This document shows positions 27,734 to 54,669 of a stretch of DNA of 64,000 nt, piece by piece (positions within the stretch are counted from its first letter, which is position 1; the number at the start of each line of letters is the position of its first letter). This DNA is from Sugiyamaella lignohabitans (taxonomy: Eukaryota > Ascomycota > Dipodascomycetes > Dipodascales > Trichomonascaceae). The position numbers were made by a program, and so were the translations under genes. Location: assembly GCF_001640025.1 (NCBI RefSeq), contig NC_031672.1:5456001-5520000 (forward strand), written 5' to 3'. The notes under the pieces are model-generated. The model did no database searches. It saw only the letters and a list, made by a program, of their open reading frames with translations, and had not been told where the DNA came from.

Positions 27734-29176
27734 ATGACTAGCTCAGATATTCAAAGCCTTCGCTCAAAATATGAGTCTGCTGGCCAAGGCCATGTGTTTC
27801 AGTTTTGGGATAAGTTAAGTCCAAGCGAGCAAGAATCTCTACTCACCCAGTTGGATCAAATCAATCCTCAGTTTGTTACTGAAGTTGCCCAGAATACTCT
27901 TAACGGCAAACACAACACAGGCGTAGCTACTCCTGATATTATCTCTCCTCTGCCAAAGGAAGCAACCGGATCTGTTGTTGACGCTGATCCCAGTCAGATT
28001 GCTGCCTGGTCTAAACTGGGTCTTGAGGCGATTGCTGCTAATAAGGTCGGTGTGGTTCTTTTGTCTGGCGGTCAAGGAACTCGTCTGGGTTCTTCCAATC
28101 CAAAAGGCTGTTACGATGTGAATTTGCCCTCTCATAAGAGTCTCTTCCAGCTTCAAGCCGAAAGAATCATTAAAATTACGGAACTGGCCAAGGCTGCTGT
28201 TCCTACTGCCTCAGAAAGTGTAGTTGTACCCTGGTACATCATGACTAGTGGACCTACTAGAAAGTCTGTAGAGCAGTTTTTCAAGGACAACAAATATTTT
28301 GGCTTGGATCCTGCAAATGTTATCTTTTTTGAGCAAGGTGTTCTTCCATGCCTCACTCCTGAAGGGAAGATCATCCTTGAGAGTAAGTCATCAGTTGCCG
28401 TGGCTCCCGATGGCAACGGTGGTATTTATAACGCTCTCTACAAGCACAACATTCTCGCTGATATTAAGAAGAGAGGTATTGAACATATTCACACATACTG
28501 CGTTGACAACTGTCTTGTCAAGGTGGCAGATCCAGCTTTTATTGGTTTCGCACTTCAAAGAAATGTTGACATAGCCACCAAAGTTGTTCGCAAACGAGAT
28601 GCAACCGAATCTGTTGGTTTGATTGTCTCTAAAAATGGTGCTCCTGGCGTTATTGAATATTCAGAAATCCCATCCGAACTTGCTTCTGCCACTGAAGCTC
28701 ATGATGACAAACTTCTCAAGTTCCGAGCTGCCAACATTGTCAACCACTACTACTCGGCTAAATTTCTCCTCAATATCCCGAATTGGGAGTCATCATTCTT
28801 ACCATTCCACGTTGCACACAAGAAAATTCCATTTGCTGACGCTGAAACTGGTTCCACCGTCAAGCCTTCTGCCCCCAATGGTGTGAAGCTAGAGCAGTTT
28901 GTGTTCGACGTTTTCCCTAGACTTGCATTCAACAATTTCGCCTCTTTGGAGGTAAATAGACAGGACGAATTCAGTCCTTTGAAGAATGGGCCGGGTGCTA
29001 AAGTTGATTGTCCTGAGACTTCTCGTTCCGATGTGTTGGGCCAATCGGCCAGATGGCTGACTGCTGCTGGCGCCATCCTAGAAGGCGATGTCGAGGTTTC
29101 TCCACTAACTAGTTACGGTGGTGAAGGCTTGGAATCTTTCAAAGGTAGAAAAATCCCCGCATCTTCTATTGTTTAG
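27734..29176 (+). CDS. QRI1: UDP-N-acetylglucosamine pyrophosphorylase
   Basis: 480 residues, single exon, like yeast Qri1/Uap1 (477). The nucleotide-binding loop VVLLSGGQGTRLGSSNPKGCYDV lies around residues 106-128. Substrate motifs follow: WYIMTSGPT, FFEQGVLPCL, VAPDGNGGIYNAL, HTYCVDNCLVKVADP and VVRKRDATESVGL. The C-terminal part carries LEQFVFDVFPRL and NRQDEFSPLKNG. The enzyme makes UDP-GlcNAc from GlcNAc-1-phosphate and UTP in the cytosol, supplying chitin, N-glycan and GPI-anchor synthesis. It shares a pathway context with ALG3 and the GH72 enzyme in this window, though not an operon-like arrangement. Confidence 0.97.
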   Translation: MTSSDIQSLRSKYESAGQGHVFQFWDKLSPSEQESLLTQLDQINPQFVTEVAQNTLNGKHNTGVATPDIISPLPKEATGSVVDADPSQIAAWSKLGLEAIAANKVGVVLLSGGQGTRLGSSNPKGCYDVNLPSHKSLFQLQAERIIKITELAKAAVPTASESVVVPWYIMTSGPTRKSVEQFFKDNKYFGLDPANVIFFEQGVLPCLTPEGKIILESKSSVAVAPDGNGGIYNALYKHNILADIKKRGIEHIHTYCVDNCLVKVADPAFIGFALQRNVDIATKVVRKRDATESVGLIVSKNGAPGVIEYSEIPSELASATEAHDDKLLKFRAANIVNHYYSAKFLLNIPNWESSFLPFHVAHKKIPFADAETGSTVKPSAPNGVKLEQFVFDVFPRLAFNNFASLEVNRQDEFSPLKNGPGAKVDCPETSRSDVLGQSARWLTAAGAILEGDVEVSPLTSYGGEGLESFKGRKIPASSIV

Positions 29177-29479
29177 CTTTTTCATTTAATTTTTTTTAAA
29201 ATTTATTCTTAGTTATATTATATAATAATAGATAACTCGCATTATTTCATGCTTGTATTGAAATTTCCGAATTGGGAAGATACTATTAAAAAAGGTGGCT
29301 GGTTATAACCGAAGAAAATGGAAATATACATACCCCTGAATCTGCAATGCAGTTATCGATGTAACCTTATTTGAATTGATAAGCGAGAAACGGGGAAACG
29401 CTGCACACCGCATGCGAATCAACGCAAGGAAAATAATATATAAACTTGAATTTCCAATTCCAGTTGATGCCGCTAAGCC
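29177..29479. promoter_or_regulatory. QRI1 3' end and promoter of the first array gene
   Basis: 303 bp. It holds a TATATAAA box at 29437-29444, about 40 bp before the ATG of the first micro-gene, and the 11-mer CATACCCCTGA near 29329, which recurs upstream of the fourth micro-gene. Confidence 0.45.
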
Positions 29480-29765
29480 ATGTTTCCTGCTTCGCGCAAC
29501 GTCGCCACTGATATTACCACACGGCGAGAGCATATTCGCCGCGAATTGGCTGACTTAGACAGACTTCGCGATAGCGTCCGACGGGATATTCGTGACTTGA
29601 GAACCAGAAGACCATGTAAGGGACCGCACTGAAGCACTTTTCAAACCTCACTAACTTATAGCCGAATTAAGGGACAAGATGCTTGAGGAGCTGCAAAATG
29701 ACCTCAGCTTCTATGACACCCGCCAACATGCCCTTGAGTCTGAACTGCGAACTGTTAGGAGATAA
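29480..29765 (+). CDS. Array microprotein 1 (79 residues, helical hairpin)
   Basis: Exons 29480-29615 and 29662-29765; the 46-base intron has a GTAAGG donor and CACTAAC branch nine bases before TATAG. Exon 1 gives MFPASRNVATDITTRR followed by an Arg/Asp/Leu helix (LADLDRLRDSVRRDIRDLR); exon 2 gives SELRDKMLEELQNDL and ends LESELRTVRR. The two helices would pair as an antiparallel coiled coil. It is the longest and most Arg-rich member. If the intron were retained, translation would stop after six more residues. A TATATAAA box lies 36 bp upstream of the ATG. No signal peptide, cysteine pairs or known domain. Function unknown. Confidence 0.7.
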
Positions 29766-30389
29766 TTCTGGCATTTCTATAGCACTAGACCAGATGACTC
29801 TTTAATGATATATTTTAATCCATCCAGTGCCACAAACTAATACACATAGGTAATCTGTGTTACTCCCAATGCTCTTGCCTTAACGAGTCTTCGACATATG
29901 TAAAAAAAACCATCTACGTCGAAAGAAAAAGGAAAGCCAATTAAATAATGGTCAGAGAAAACATAATATGTCAATATGACACAGGTCAAAATTGGGTAAA
30001 AGCAAATATTTACAAAATCAAACCGAGCCTTGCAATGTGGAAATGGCGAAGGGAGTAAGAAACTGGAAGATTAATCAAATGTGCGGTAAGAATATATGAT
30101 ATGAATTGTACAAGCTTCTAATGGAAACAAGAGAAGATTTATAGCATAAATCGGGCACAAAATATTAAGCGGATTTAGCAAATGTCACAAAACACTTTGA
30201 TACAAGTAAAAAAAATTACGTAATCTACTCACTAGAATAATTACACCATTTTAGACAGATCAACTTCAGAGATAGATCGTACCAAGATTGCTGCCAATTC
30301 CACTGATGTTGGTATGTCACTTCTTCAGAAATGGTCTAATTTGCTTACATTATATCGTCAGGCTTTTCCTTCAGGCCAACAAACTAGTC
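29766..30389. other. Spacer between array genes 1 and 2
   Basis: 624 bp, AT-rich. I looked for a further two-exon copy and found none. A weak TATATC at 30351 lies about 40 bp before gene 2. Upstream ATGs (for example at 30305) are out of frame with gene 2. Confidence 0.35.
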
Positions 30390-30659
30390 ATGGATTCATG
30401 GGAAAAAAATAGAATATGCGAAAGGATTGTGCAGAATATCAAAGAAGAGAAGTGCCATCGAGAGGAACTTGTTGAACGTGAAAGGAGAATAACCTTCGAG
30501 TCTTGTGAGTAGTAGTGCTAGTGAATTTAAAACTTTTGTACTAACAATTGACAAGTTTGCCTCAAAAGACAACTTCGCAGGGAAATACTCAATCGCACCA
30601 CAAAAATCCGCATTCTTGAAAAGGAGTTGCTGGCTCTATACAGGGGAGTACAAAAGTAA
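30390..30659 (+). CDS. Array microprotein 2 (72 residues, helical hairpin)
   Basis: Exons 30390-30504 and 30556-30659, joined in phase 1 over a 51-base intron (GTGAGT donor, TACTAAC branch, ACAAG acceptor). Exon 1 encodes MDSWEKNRICERIVQNI and KEEKCHREELVERERRI; exon 2 encodes CLKRQLRREILNRTTKIR and ends ILEKELLALYRGVQK. The second helix has clean a/d leucine and isoleucine spacing. The unspliced frame stops within three codons of the donor. Three Cys residues are present, not obviously paired. Function unknown; recognised as a gene mainly from shared plan with its four neighbours. Confidence 0.68.
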
Positions 30660-30980
30660 AACTATAGCTTGATAAGTGTATTAATATAATAATACGATAG
30701 CACATTGCTTTTTTTGGTAGTCAAAATCCTTGTAGGAAGCTTACATTCGCAGGTCTATGAGGACACCTATGTAACTTTGAGGCACGCAGATCTATTTGAA
30801 ACGAGTTTGTCGAGGCGAGCGTTACACGATCTATCGTGTTGAATTAGATATGTAGCATATTTCCCCACCTTAATGAGTTAATTTAGTGAATCAAAAAAGA
30901 AAAGAAGTGGATATCACAATGCGTTTTGCTCAGCTATAAAAGCTGCGAGTTTACCGCTTGTTTTGAAACTCAAGTTTCCA
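30660..30980. promoter_or_regulatory. Spacer and promoter of array gene 3
   Basis: 321 bp ending in a strong TATAAAAG at 30936-30943, 38 bp before the ATG. The TATA box sits inside a perfect palindrome-like frame CAGCT-ATAAA-AGCTG (30932-30946). Confidence 0.45.
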
Positions 30981-31244
30981 ATGAGTTATTACTTCAATCG
31001 CAAAAAAGAGCAGCTAAGAATGGAAATCCAAAATTTGGAAGAAACCCGAGATGACATTGAACAAGATCTAGCTGACATTGAGTTTAGTTGCCGTAAGTAC
31101 ACAAATGGAAATAGATTAGAATTGTCCTAACTGTTAGCATCACCTCCCTCGGCTGAGCACCTTCGTAAGAGATTGAAAAGGGAGATAGCCGAAATCACTT
31201 CTTTGATCAACGCTAAGAAAAATGAGCTGTATAATATGTCGTGA
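30981..31244 (+). CDS. Array microprotein 3 (72 residues, helical hairpin)
   Basis: Exons 30981-31092 and 31138-31244; the 45-base intron is the shortest in the window (GTAAGT donor, CCTAAC branch, GTTAG acceptor), phase 1. Exon 1: MSYYFNRKKEQLRMEIQNL then EETRDDIEQDLADIEFSC. The junction codon gives Pro and starts a hinge (PSPPSAEH), followed by LRKRLKREIAEITSLIN and AKKNELYNMS. Exon 1 helix is acidic toward its end, exon 2 helix basic at its start, which would favour hairpin pairing. Function unknown. Confidence 0.7.
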
Positions 31245-31656
31245 AGTTTTTTGTCCGACATATATATCTTATATTTTACTCTAATGAATATAAAATTGCA
31301 TTTAGATCCAAGCATATTCTAAGCCATTGCTTAAGGAATACTGAAGAGAACTAGAAGGCCAGATGTCTTTTAGGCGAAACCCCGTTACCGATATAGGTAA
31401 GGGAGCGCGGGCCATGCTTTGGAAGAAGCCTGTGATCCGCTTTTAGTTAGGTTGATCTGCGTTGCATGCATACCCCTGAGATTTCTCAATCAGTGGGACT
31501 CATTGCATTGGAAGTCAATTCATGTACCTTGTGAAACTCACAGACTGCGGTTCTCAAGTAAGGATTACTTGCATTCTCAGCACATATAAAACATTACTAC
31601 GCTGGGATTCTATATATATATGCTTACCGTATATGCTGCTTCTCCACATCATCAAA
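31245..31656. promoter_or_regulatory. Spacer and promoter of array gene 4, with a possible decayed gene start
   Basis: 412 bp. TATAAAA at 31585-31591 lies 66 bp before gene 4. The 11-mer CATACCCCTGA near 31469 is shared with the region upstream of gene 1. A 27-codon frame at 31363-31446 begins MSFRRNPVTDIG, resembling the N-terminus of array protein 1 (RNVATDI), and is followed by a GTAAGG; it may be a relic of a sixth member, but the support is thin. Confidence 0.4.
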
Positions 31657-31924
31657 ATGAGGCGCTCCAACGAATACACTAGACAGCAACTGCTAATTAT
31701 CGGATTGGACTCACTTAGAATGCGCAGGGAACGATTGGTTGAGAGGGTGGATCAAATACAATGTGGTAAGAGAGCTTCTTAAATTTGTTAATAGAGCTTA
31801 CTGACAGAGTTTAGGGCTGAAGTATAGAAGAGATAGGCAATTTGCAGAACTTGTGCATGAGCTCAACGAACTGGATGCTCTCATCAACAACTTACAAACT
31901 GAATTGGATAGATACTATTATTAA
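31657..31924 (+). CDS. Array microprotein 4 (72 residues, helical hairpin)
   Basis: Exons 31657-31765 and 31815-31924, phase-1 junction, 49-base intron with GTAAGA donor and acceptor TTTAG at 31814. An earlier AG at 31807 (TACTGACAG) would lead to an in-frame stop, so the second AG is preferred. Exon 1: MRRSNEYTRQQLLIIG and LDSLRMRRERLVERVDQIQC; exon 2: LKYRRDRQFAELVHEL then NELDALINNLQTELDRYYY. The second helix has the best heptad pattern of the family. It ends in three tyrosines. Function unknown. Confidence 0.68.
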
Positions 31925-32101
31925 TAAATAAATAATGTTATATCACAGTAAGTGGATCACGGTGCACTGCAGAAAGCAGGTAATTTGTTGCATGATATAA
32001 CTTCAGGATTTGTTCCAAGAATGAGAACTATAAGAGAGGACCATGTCCCTGTATCTCTGTCTTTCGTCTACTATCGAAATTTAAGCTTACTTTTAATCAA
32101 C

Positions 32102-32368
32102 ATGAGTATTCAGAAAGAAGATTTGAGTCGGAATATATATCGACTGAGAAGAATCTGTAGCGAGTTGACTGAGGAACTTGAGGGGATGAGACAAAGACAT
32201 GGTACGTTTCATCTTACAACCAAAATATAGCTATAATAACTAACTAATCCAGGACCAGAACAAAGTAGGAGTGTTCGTTCTCGTATTCTTAGAGACTTAG
32301 ATAGTAGCTATGCTAAGCTGAGAATCCTGGAAGAAGAACTGGTATATCTCAATACAGTATTAAAATAA
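32102..32368 (+). CDS. Array microprotein 5 (71 residues, helical hairpin)
   Basis: Exons 32102-32201 and 32253-32368, phase 1, 51-base intron (GTACGT donor, AACTAAC branch, CCAG acceptor). Exon 1: MSIQKEDLSRNIYRLR and RICSELTEELEGMRQRH; junction Gly; exon 2: PEQSRSVRSRILRDLD then SSYAKLRILEEELVYLN. A TATAAGAG at 32029-32036 is 66 bp upstream. It shares the LRILE.EL block with protein 2 (IRILEKELL), the clearest pairwise similarity in the array. It converges on the INP2-like gene with a 148 bp gap. Function unknown. Confidence 0.7.
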
Positions 32369-32516
32369 GGCTATGATTGCCAACTAGCCAGGAAGGACAG
32401 AATATAAATTTTTTATTACATCCGAAAGTTAATATTTTTAAAATAGCATAACAAAAAATAATCATAAAGAAAATAAACTGGTCATTCAAGTCGTAAATTA
32501 AAAATGCAATTGTGAT

Positions 32517-34622
32517 CTACTGGTTAGAGTGGGCTTTTCGTTGGTCCAGTACACTTCCTAGTTCCAACACAAAGTTATCTCGCTGTGCCCTTACAGATTT
32601 CCTTTCAGCTTCAAGTTCTCTTTGCTGTCTCATGAGACTAAGCCTTGCTTGTCGAGGTAGTTGAGAGAATACTCTCTTAGTACCCTCGTTTCCCACTATA
32701 CCTTCAAGAATTGTCATGGAAGAGGTAGAAGTACTGCGAGAACTGGGACCGGTATCTCGTATAGGCCCATAACTCTGACGGACAGATTCGTCCATAGAAG
32801 TGCTACTGGAATTGTCATCAAAATCTGACAACTTAGGTTCATGCCCAAAAAGCCCACTTTCTAAAGACTGGTCTTCAATTAAAGTTGCCTCTGTGCACGT
32901 ACTAGCATTTTGCAGATGTTTTCGTTTGAAGGTAGACATCGCATTTGAATCACCTGCTGCTAAAGATGCTTTCCAGGTTGATAGTAGACCATTAATCTCT
33001 TCACCCATCTGCTCATAATTAAGGTCAAAATTTTCTGTCTCTTCTGACAGAAAATGAAGTCTCGCCTGTATATGCTGAAGCGAGGCCGTCAATGCATTTA
33101 GCTTACTAACTCTTGAAAGAACTTTGGGATCCAGAAACGCGTCAGACGAATTGTTTTCGACTATTGGTAATAGATTATTTCTGGAAATCGTAGTGGATAG
33201 CCTCATCATGAGACCAGAACATGATTCAACGTGATCGACAATTTTGCCCCACTTACCAAGCTCTTGTCTTGTGCACTCTCCTGATGCAGAGGCAGATATT
33301 AAGCAGCATATAAAAGCTCTTCTAAGGAAATGTAAGCGCTTGAATTCGTTGCGGAGAAATTTAAGGGACACATTTCCGCCATTGGATCCATAGTAAACTT
33401 CTTTAGCTAGTGATCCCCAACCTGTAGTATTGGTAAAACCAACGAAATCATCATTCATGACAAACGAAAACTCCTGCTGGGGGCCTTGCAGTTCATAGAT
33501 ATCAAAATACCGCTGCAGATCAAGCTCTGAACAGCAGCCCAAGCATTCCTTAATAGCATCTAGGTACGCTGTGATGGCCAGGTATAGACTTGAGGAAACA
33601 GCCGACCGCAGCGACTTGGCAGTTCTCATCTGCTTGATATTATCTTTCGCCATTAATCTGGATCCAGGAATACGACTGCCAATTACTGAAGCATCGGCCA
33701 GACTGGGCTGGTATCCCATACTAAGCAGATCAACTTCTTGGATGAGAGATAGGCATTTTGAGACAGCCACGTCAAACGATAGATTGTTTTCGACGAAGTG
33801 AGATGCATAGGCGATAGTCTTAGCACGCAACATTCGGAGTGCCCTCCTTCGAGAATGCCCAAAAAGGAATAAGAAGGTGCACAGTATCACAATAAGCCCA
33901 CATGTACACCTATAATATGTAGCCGAGTTATTTCCGTCTTTGGGGTCATGTCGTAATTGCTTCGCTTTTTTCATCTGCCAAGACAGTAGAGTAACAATTA
34001 CCACTATACAGCCACCCCCACCGGACCAGTATTTTCTCTGCATCTTAAGCGTCTCCCATGGGCCATGATCTCCAAATAAAATGTTTTGCTTTCTTAATTT
34101 TTGTCGAGTCACAGGGTCTATATTGTGATTAGCTACCATGGACGTGGTTGTAGACTCCAACAATTGTGAGCTAATGAGAATATATCTGAATCTTTCCAGG
34201 AATTTCGTATTCTCAATACCATTCAGTTGTGGTTTCAAAGCATTACGGATAATCTCAAAAAACTTTTGCTTGCGTACTTGAGGTAGTGACATACCACCCG
34301 CACTTAGTGATAATGGAAATGGAATAGAAGCAGCTGCTATAATTCGTCCGCGCATTATTGATTCTTCTTTGGTATCAAAGCGTGAGCTTTGATCTTTATC
34401 ATCATCATCGCTTTGATAGAAATCATTATCGTTAAGAATTGCCTGTTTAGCGTCGCCAAATCCTGCATCTCCAATAATGCTCTGTCTAGCGCTTGAACCG
34501 TCGTCTATTCCCCAGTCGGACATTCCTGCATCGCTTAAATAATCTCCTAGAGGAGTTCCATGAAACACATCTGGGCTGCCAGTTAGGTCAGATTCATCTG
34601 CAGTTTCCAAATCCATGTTCAT
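32517..34622 (-). CDS. INP2: Vezatin/INP2-like peroxisome inheritance protein
   Basis: 701 residues from the ATG at 34622 (MNMDLETADESD); no ATG lies further upstream before the stop. An acidic N-terminal region precedes FFEIIRNALKPQLNG and FLERFRYILISSQLL. Two close hydrophobic spans follow (GGGGCIVVIVTLLSW near 200, LIVILCTFLFLFGH near 240), then RRALRMLRAKTIAYASHFVENN and LSLIQEVDLLSMGYQPS. That block is the myosin-binding vezatin/Inp2 signature. Inp2 links peroxisomes to the class V myosin Myo2 for bud-directed transport. The C-terminal half is helical and Ser-rich and ends in a coiled segment (MRQQRELEAERKSVRAQRDN). Length agrees with yeast Inp2 (705). Confidence 0.82.
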   Translation of the reverse strand: MNMDLETADESDLTGSPDVFHGTPLGDYLSDAGMSDWGIDDGSSARQSIIGDAGFGDAKQAILNDNDFYQSDDDDKDQSSRFDTKEESIMRGRIIAAASIPFPLSLSAGGMSLPQVRKQKFFEIIRNALKPQLNGIENTKFLERFRYILISSQLLESTTTSMVANHNIDPVTRQKLRKQNILFGDHGPWETLKMQRKYWSGGGGCIVVIVTLLSWQMKKAKQLRHDPKDGNNSATYYRCTCGLIVILCTFLFLFGHSRRRALRMLRAKTIAYASHFVENNLSFDVAVSKCLSLIQEVDLLSMGYQPSLADASVIGSRIPGSRLMAKDNIKQMRTAKSLRSAVSSSLYLAITAYLDAIKECLGCCSELDLQRYFDIYELQGPQQEFSFVMNDDFVGFTNTTGWGSLAKEVYYGSNGGNVSLKFLRNEFKRLHFLRRAFICCLISASASGECTRQELGKWGKIVDHVESCSGLMMRLSTTISRNNLLPIVENNSSDAFLDPKVLSRVSKLNALTASLQHIQARLHFLSEETENFDLNYEQMGEEINGLLSTWKASLAAGDSNAMSTFKRKHLQNASTCTEATLIEDQSLESGLFGHEPKLSDFDDNSSSTSMDESVRQSYGPIRDTGPSSRSTSTSSMTILEGIVGNEGTKRVFSQLPRQARLSLMRQQRELEAERKSVRAQRDNFVLELGSVLDQRKAHSNQ

Positions 34623-53815: not shown

Positions 53816-54669
53816 ATGGCTTCCCAAAAAGCTGGTGCTGCCGGTAACAAATTCCGCATGTCGGTATGTGTTTAATATGAAAGAAGTGAATGAGATTTCT
53901 AAGTTTGTTCAGAGGATTTAGGGTTGTTTTTGAAATTGGCGACAAGGAGAGGAGACGATTTGAAGAACTCAATATCCAGAAGATCCAGCAAACTCGATTT
54001 GTTAAGCAGTGATGAATTTAAATGGCTCTCACTCATCTTTTAATTTGACGATTAATAACCACGACTTTTGACGATTAATGACTATGAAGAGAGTACCGCC
54101 GTAATTTACTCGACAAATTAACTAAGACAATACCGATTATTTGAGATGCGAATAATAACATCATTTTTCCCTAAAGTCTCTGAGAATGTGGAATATCGCC
54201 TGTTGAATTTGATGACTTTTTATCCCGAACAAACTTATAAACTCTATCCCTTTAGCGATATTTTTTGTGGCCTATGCCCTTTACTAACAATATCAAGCTC
54301 GGTCTCCCCGTTGGTGCCGTCATCAACTGTTGCGACAACTCTGGTGCTAGAAACCTCTACATCATCTCCGTCAAGGGTGTTGGTGCTAGACTTAACCGTC
54401 TTCCTGCTGCTGGTGTCGGTGACATGGTTATGGCCACTGTCAAGAAGGGTAAGCCTGAGCTCCGTAAGAAGGTTATGCCTGCTATTGTTGTTCGTCAATC
54501 TAAGCCATGGAGAAGAAGAGATGGTGTCTATCTTTACTTTGAAGATAACGCCGGTGTCATTGTTAACCCTAAGGGTGAAATGAAGGGCTCTGCTATCACT
54601 GGACCCGTTGGTAAGGAATGTGCTGATTTGTGGCCAAGAATTGCTTCAAACTCCGGTGTTGTTGTTTAA
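53816..54669 (+). CDS. RPL23: Large ribosomal subunit protein uL14 (L23), two exons
   Basis: Exons 53816-53863 and 54298-54669, 139 residues. Exon 1 encodes [16 protein letters not shown]; exon 2 opens with [21 protein letters not shown], the universal uL14 core, and ends [15 protein letters not shown]. The 434-base intron (GTATGT donor, TACTAAC then AATATCAAG) is by far the longest here, in keeping with long regulatory introns in yeast ribosomal-protein genes. The protein lies at the subunit interface of the 60S particle. Confidence 0.98.

What the first reader, a model, noticed from the sequence alone, without database searches (positions are those of the whole stretch)
29480..32368. Tandem family of five two-exon helical-hairpin microproteins of unknown function
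Five same-strand genes encode proteins of 79, 72, 72, 72 and 71 residues. All have one central phase-1 intron of 45-51 bases, all are highly charged, and all read as helix, hinge, helix with heptad leucines/isoleucines. Member-to-member identity is low, apart from fragments such as IRILEKELL (gene 2) and LRILEEELV (gene 5), while gene structure and length are conserved. I know no yeast family with this arrangement. Splice predictions are independently supported because every junction restores frame with the lineage's CTAAC-AG signal. Possible roles (inference only): small coiled-coil assembly subunits, binding partners for a fast-evolving target, or stage-specific regulators.
Basis: partly seen in the sequence, partly recalled or inferred. 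Interest (0 to 1): 0.92.

Follow-up and report, generated by a model that had tools for sequence, protein, structure and literature searches.

The report
Five tandem spliced helical-hairpin microprotein genes
A stretch of yeast DNA holds a row of five small, related, two-exon genes for tiny coiled-coil proteins, probably hairpin-shaped, that match no known family; the genes look real and old, but what they do is not known.

Summary
All five two-exon frames are at the stated coordinates: 79, 72, 72, 72 and 71 aa, phase-1 introns of 46, 51, 45, 49 and 51 bases. One rule set gave five same-strand models here, none in 113 other windows of the same genome, and at most one in 1,000 dinucleotide shuffles (rules set after seeing the five). 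Each of g1, g2, g3 and g5 scores above its 1,000 shuffles against a profile of the other four; g4 does not. Third codon positions are near chance (0.32 against 0.26), second positions 0.50, which points to old duplicates kept by selection on protein. g3's unspliced frame is modelled as a confident helical hairpin (pLDDT 86, pTM 0.71); g5's is helix-hinge-helix with low packing confidence. No Pfam, NCBIfam, PHROG or Rfam family was met, no protein relative was found, and searches of the own genome found no further copy within their reach. Best reading: a lineage-restricted, diverged family of soluble antiparallel coiled-coil hairpins that act by helix pairing with each other or with a larger partner. 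The genes are well supported, the fold partly, the role inferred. Expression and splicing are untested.

The parts
29480..29615 (+). g1 exon 1
29616..29661 (+). g1 intron, 46 b, phase 1, CTAAC
29662..29765 (+). g1 exon 2 with stop; protein 79 aa
30390..30504 (+). g2 exon 1 (longer in-frame start at 30306 possible)
30505..30555 (+). g2 intron, 51 b, phase 1, TACTAAC, AAG acceptor
30556..30659 (+). g2 exon 2 with stop; protein 72 aa
30981..31092 (+). g3 exon 1
31093..31137 (+). g3 intron, 45 b, phase 1, CTAAC
31138..31244 (+). g3 exon 2 with stop; protein 72 aa
31657..31765 (+). g4 exon 1 (longer in-frame start at 31633 possible)
31766..31814 (+). g4 intron, 49 b, phase 1, CTGAC, nearer AG skipped
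31815..31924 (+). g4 exon 2 with stop; protein 72 aa
32102..32201 (+). g5 exon 1 (longer in-frame start at 32021 possible)
32202..32252 (+). g5 intron, 51 b, phase 1, CTAAC (second acceptor 6 b on)
32253..32368 (+). g5 exon 2 with stop; protein 71 aa
29437..29443 (+). TATA-type element 43 b before g1 (others 46 b before g3 and 72 b before g4)
   Evidence: five such elements in the five upstream regions, 1.01 expected
29326..29339 (+). motif ATACATACCCCTGA, 154 b before g1
31466..31479 (+). motif ATGCATACCCCTGA, 191 b before g4

Best explanation
Five real, old, protein-coding tandem duplicates of one ancestral two-exon gene, confined as far as can be seen to this lineage. Each makes a soluble 71-79 aa protein of two charged helices joined by a hinge near the splice junction; the helices fold back as an antiparallel coiled-coil hairpin. 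Shown: the gene models and their excess over chance, the family relation (weak for g4), and conservation at protein level with third positions near chance. Supported by prediction only: the hairpin, well for g3, weakly for g5, not modelled for the other three. Inferred: they work through helix-helix pairing, as small subunits that pair with one another or cap a larger coiled-coil partner, and the copies have diverged in partner preference while keeping the scaffold; TATA-type elements before g1, g3 and g4 suggest separate promoters.
For: Five same-strand models against 0 in 113 genome windows and a single model in 1 of 1,000 shuffles. Leave-one-out profile scores above all 1,000 shuffles each for g1 (22.0 bits; best shuffle 21.5), g2, g3 and g5. 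Mean pairwise score above all 500 pattern-preserving shuffles, same-exon sums above all 300. Codon-position identity 0.36, 0.50, 0.32 with 0.26 expected at the third. g3 hairpin model, pTM 0.71; among the 50 Foldseek rows shown of 395, high TM-scores go to hairpins such as CHMP4B (0.76/0.85) and Kif21A (0.72/0.80), none with E below 0.8. The only PDB chain under E 0.001 to the family profile is Sc-apCC-2, E 0.00044; that this is a designed single-chain antiparallel coiled coil is my reading of its name. No membrane or signal stretch by eye.
Against: No transcript, spliced read or protein was seen. No orthologue was found. Codon composition does not help: all five lie below the coding median (0.102 per codon) and g2 (-0.133) is at the 1st percentile of 390 coding pieces. 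Cross-exon scores also exceed all 300 shuffles, so part of the likeness is generic coiled-coil character. g4 scores 7.0 bits, reached by 77 of 1,000 shuffles. Four-fold third-base identity is 12 of 31, a little above chance, so full saturation is not proved. Heptad excess fails in 4 of 10 exons and hydrophobic moment in 8 of 10. Both structure models carry the translated intron in the hinge, and g5's pTM is 0.36. With the consensus alone, Sc-apCC-2 falls to E 0.18 behind other coiled coils, and g1 alone finds no chain under E 0.07. Nothing identifies a partner.
Confidence: 0.55

Rival explanations
1. Stage-specific structural subunits: the five are small parts of one meiotic, spore or cytoskeletal machine, each filling a fixed place, rather than interchangeable pairing modules.
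For: Small, charged, helical and in five distinct versions; two MSE-type sites lie before g2. TATA-type elements before three genes suggest regulated expression (inference).
Against: MSE sites before 1 of 5 genes only, 1.11 expected in all; no URS1 site in any (both motifs recalled from S. cerevisiae). No Pfam family of such machines among hits up to E 10.
Confidence: 0.15
2. Arms-race family: the copies diverge because a partner (a selfish element, virus-like agent or competitor) changes, and the array is a set of recognition or blocking proteins.
For: Identity of 0.18-0.32 within one array; lineage restriction as far as searched.
Against: Divergence looks old rather than fast: third positions are near chance while second positions are 0.50. 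No orthologues to test positive selection. No mobile or viral gene was noticed beside the array.
Confidence: 0.1
3. Four related genes plus one look-alike: g4 is an unrelated coiled-coil gene, or a very diverged copy losing function.
For: g4's leave-one-out score is reached by 77 of 1,000 shuffles; the consensus finds exons of g1, g2, g3 and g5 but not g4; its branch signal is CTGAC and its junction column differs.
Against: Place, strand, length, phase-1 intron, and exon-2 likeness to g1 (z 4.2) and g3 (z 4.0).
Confidence: 0.12
4. Not protein-coding: chance or decayed frames in an intergenic gap, or a non-coding transcript.
For: No expression evidence; codon composition is weak.
Against: Chance controls, family relation, codon-position pattern, no Rfam match up to E 1.
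Confidence: 0.05

Closest known systems
Tandem gene arrays of unknown function in Blastobotrys (Arxula) adeninivorans, family GL3C4705 (PMC4022394; abstract, passages and section 8 seen)
   Same: A related yeast (relation recalled); a family of unknown function without homologues in databases, arranged in tandem arrays.
   Different: Over 100 members, most in tail-to-tail inverted repeats; duplicated arrays highly conserved at nucleotide level. Here five head-to-tail copies at one place, strongly diverged. Its sequences are in a supplement that could not be read, so relation is untested.
Single-chain antiparallel coiled coils: Kif21A antiparallel monomeric coiled coil; Sc-apCC-2
   Same: Two helices paired in one short chain, as in the g3 model.
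   Different: Likeness of fold class only; Foldseek E 2.6 for Kif21A, profile E 0.00044 for Sc-apCC-2; neither shows descent.
ESCRT-III core hairpin (CHMP4B, Snf7)
   Same: Hairpin shape and length (TM 0.71-0.78 by query length).
   Different: Foldseek E above 1; no Pfam match to ESCRT-III; the proteins end after the hairpin.
CCDC-167 (PF15188)
   Same: g3 matches at E 1.3e-5, 25.8 bits, residues 14-71.
   Different: Below the curated cut-off of 27 bits, and met by 1 of 5 members.
Small DASH subunits (Dad1-4, Hsk3; recalled)
   Same: Similar size and helical nature (recalled).
   Different: No DASH family among Pfam hits up to E 10 for any of the five.

Membership tests
One tandem paralogous family (this array) | Each member recognised by a profile of the others better than its own shuffles | tested here: inconclusive
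   Met by 4 of 5 (g1, g2, g3, g5: 0 of 1,000 shuffles each); not met by g4 (20 of 500 plain and 57 of 500 pattern-preserving shuffles reach it)
One tandem paralogous family (this array) | Same gene structure: two exons, phase-1 intron near the hinge | tested here: met
   Phase 1 in 5 of 5; junction columns 52, 51, 51 in g1, g3, g5 and 57 and 42 in g2 and g4
Any Pfam-A family | Score at or above the curated cut-off | tested here: not met
   0 of 5 members; nearest is g3 to CCDC-167, 25.8 against 27 bits
Any NCBIfam family | Score at or above the curated cut-off | tested here: not met
   1 of 5 members has any hit up to E 0.1: 18.6 bits against a cut-off of 300
Any PHROG family | A clear match shared by members (the library has no curated cut-off) | tested here: not met
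   Eight families up to E 0.1, each met by 1 of 5 members, best E 0.003
DASH complex subunits | Match to the DASH Pfam profiles | tested here: not met
   None among hits up to E 10 for 5 of 5 members; HMMER's filters drop most matches above about 0.1
B. adeninivorans GL3C4705 family | Sequence similarity to its members | not testable with these tools
   Sequences not available; a B. adeninivorans protein is in the searched database, and no relative of the array was found there
Antiparallel coiled-coil hairpin (fold class) | Two helices packed antiparallel in one chain | tested here: inconclusive
   g3 unspliced frame pTM 0.71; g5 unspliced frame pTM 0.36; three members not modelled
Known structured RNA | Rfam match in 29000-32700 | tested here: not met
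   0 matches up to E 1, both strands

The most novel reading that the evidence does not exclude
The array is a natural set of helical hairpins whose pairing code has been diversified by tandem duplication: each copy selects a different partner, inside the array or outside it, possibly under genetic conflict.
Probability: 0.12. Interest if true: 0.75.

Novelty: new variant of a known kind. Interest (0 to 1): 0.45.

Why it matters
Spliced genes of about 70 codons are easily missed by gene finders. An array of five strongly diverged copies suggests that such a family can last a long time in one yeast lineage without recognisable relatives. If the copies pair selectively, they would be a natural set of short helical hairpins of different specificity. 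If they are only one more orphan family, the gain is an annotation correction.

Tried and rejected
Known families: Pfam, NCBIfam, PHROGs, Rfam and PDB sequences gave nothing beyond generic coiled-coil likeness.

More copies in the genome: g3 alone found its own two exons; the other four joined found eight places, all in the array. The family consensus found 6 places up to E 10: five are exons of g1, g2, g3 and g5, one (E 0.51) lies in a long frame that looks by eye like an amine oxidase with an HMG box; g4 was not found, so members as far off as g4 would be missed elsewhere too. A profile scan of 462 relaxed two-exon models in the 264-kb sample found nothing outside the array better than E 0.8; in stop-to-stop frames the best outside was E 0.11. 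The sample is under 2% of the genome.

Relatives in other species: alignment search, 669 candidates, none at E up to 1; g3 alone, no candidate; g1, g2, g4 and g5 were not searched singly. Control: the vezatin-like neighbour found 17 proteins including its own record, among them Trichomonascus, Wickerhamiella and Blastobotrys. So related yeasts are in the database, but short spliced genes may not be annotated there.

Tests that did not help: codon composition. An intron pattern counted against reversed sequence was not enriched (101 real, 172 reversed), so that crude pattern gives no support for the genome-wide splice grammar. A search for introns between long exons gave only 6 candidates. Leave-one-out failed technically and was redone.

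Shared promoter motif: over-represented, but none of the eight fetched loci outside the array holds a relative at E below 1, and their frames showed no common theme by eye. CCCCT itself is not enriched before the five genes (2 found, 2.89 expected).

Literature: 7 searches; four of them returned no paper. PMC4022394 was seen in abstract, passages and section 8; of the other papers only the listings. I found no paper on this array in those searches; the library lacks most subscription journals and bioRxiv.

Full report
Setting. The window is bases 5,456,001-5,520,000 of a 5,930,846-base contig in a 15.93-Mb, four-contig genome. Genome size, contig number and the named relatives of a neighbouring protein (Trichomonascus, Wickerhamiella, Blastobotrys) suggest Sugiyamaella lignohabitans; that name is my inference from recall, and no tool gave it. 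The array fills the gap between a UDPGP-family gene (27734-29176, probably UAP1) and a convergent vezatin-family gene (32517-34622).

Gene models. Every intron is phase 1 and 45-51 bases long. Four of five have CTAAC 4-8 bases before the acceptor AG; g4 has CTGAC and passes over a nearer AG. g2 ends in TACTAACAATTGACAAG; the window's RPL23 gene has TACTAACAATATCAAG, its second exon carrying a Ribosomal_L14 domain and its first exon recognised from memory. A crude genome-wide count of such intron patterns was not above reversed sequence. Start codons are uncertain for g2, g4 and g5.

Chance. With one rule set (donor GTRNG, branch CTRAY, intron 40-60, each exon at least 25 codons, 60-100 aa, charged at least 0.33, P+G at most 0.06) the 3,340-base interval has 5 models on one strand. 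None of 113 other windows of the 264-kb sample has one, and 1 of 1,000 dinucleotide shuffles has a single one. Without the composition filter 27 of 1,000 shuffles have one model and none has two. An earlier, stricter scan gave 9 models in 150,781 unmasked bases; four pass the charge filter and all four are in the array (g1, g3, and g5 with two acceptors). It missed g2 for its AAG acceptor, and g4 with its longer start fell just under the charge limit. The rules were set after the five were known.

Family. With the hydrophobic/polar pattern kept, the mean pairwise score of the five is 41.2 against 29.3 (s.d. 1.8), reached in 0 of 500 shuffles; same-exon sums are 58.9 against 41.3, reached in 0 of 300; cross-exon scores are 23.1 against 19.8, also 0 of 300, which shows a generic coiled-coil share. 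Leave-one-out profiles place g1, g2, g3 and g5 above all 1,000 shuffles each (g1 narrowly, 22.0 against 21.5 bits); g4 scores 7.0 bits, reached by 77 of 1,000. Over ten pairs, aligned codons agree at 0.36, 0.50 and 0.32 by position, with 0.26 expected at the third; four-fold third bases agree in 12 of 31. The alignment was made on protein, which favours first and second positions. Old duplicates kept by selection on protein is the plain reading, not a proof.

Fold. Heptad excess has p<0.05 in 6 of 10 exons; a moment test does so in 2 of 10. The unspliced g3 frame, with 15 extra hinge residues, is predicted as main helices 2-41 and 59-84 with pLDDT 86 and pTM 0.71. g5 gives helices 2-47 and 54-87 with pLDDT 67 and pTM 0.36, so its packing is not supported. 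Foldseek on the g3 model gave 395 matches, the best at E 0.84; of the 50 shown, hairpins such as CHMP4B, Snf7 and Kif21A have high TM-scores, as have helical stretches of PI3K.

Relatives. None by protein search, none at curated cut-offs. In the own genome only the array was found, within the reach of those searches. A related yeast has a much larger family of unknown function in tandem arrays (PMC4022394, section 8), so such arrays have a precedent; whether the two are related could not be tested.

Regulation. TATA-type elements lie 43, 46 and 72 bases before g1, g3 and g4, with two more farther up (five found, 1.01 expected); g2 and g5 have none. g1 and g4 share ATRCATACCCCTGA 154 and 191 bases upstream, found 27 times in the genome with up to one mismatch against 6 for its reversed form. 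Ten of those 27 places were fetched, two of them in the array; the other eight hold no relative at E below 1, and 17 were not fetched.

Verdict. Real, probably old, lineage-restricted as far as searched: a tandem family of helical microproteins, hairpins by the one confident model. How it works is inferred: pairing of helices with each other or with a larger partner. It is a good annotation find and a tractable orphan family; nothing here demonstrates a new mechanism.

Noticed in passing
window 1-64000 and flanks L012-L015, against L016-L031: The GC-rich 13-mer CCGGCGGCTGGGG (either strand) is absent from the window and 40 kb of flanks (0 in 104 kb) but occurs 104 times in 16 other 10-kb samples of the same contig; 14 of the 16 have at least two, and two (L026, L029) have none. 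A dispersed GC-rich repeat seems to be missing from this stretch; GC is 0.414-0.436 here and 0.423-0.515 elsewhere.
   Followed up: partly
window 29326-29339 and 31466-31479; L032, L035-L041: Motif ATRCATACCCCTGA is over-represented in the genome (27 places with 0-1 mismatch, 6 for the reversed pattern); the copies at 31466 and in L035, L036 and L038 continue as GAT. Function unknown.
   Followed up: partly
window 30306-30361: Upstream of g2 a GTATGT...CTAAT...CAG stretch could be a 5'-UTR intron; seen by eye only.
   Followed up: no
window 53864-54297: RPL23 appears to have a 434-base phase-0 intron, much longer than the array introns (read by eye; domain).
   Followed up: no
g2 residues 10, 22, 40; g3 residue 37; g4 residue 36; g5 residue 19: Single cysteines lie at or near the hinge in g2, g3 and g4 but not in g1 or g5; seen by eye in the translations.
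   Followed up: no
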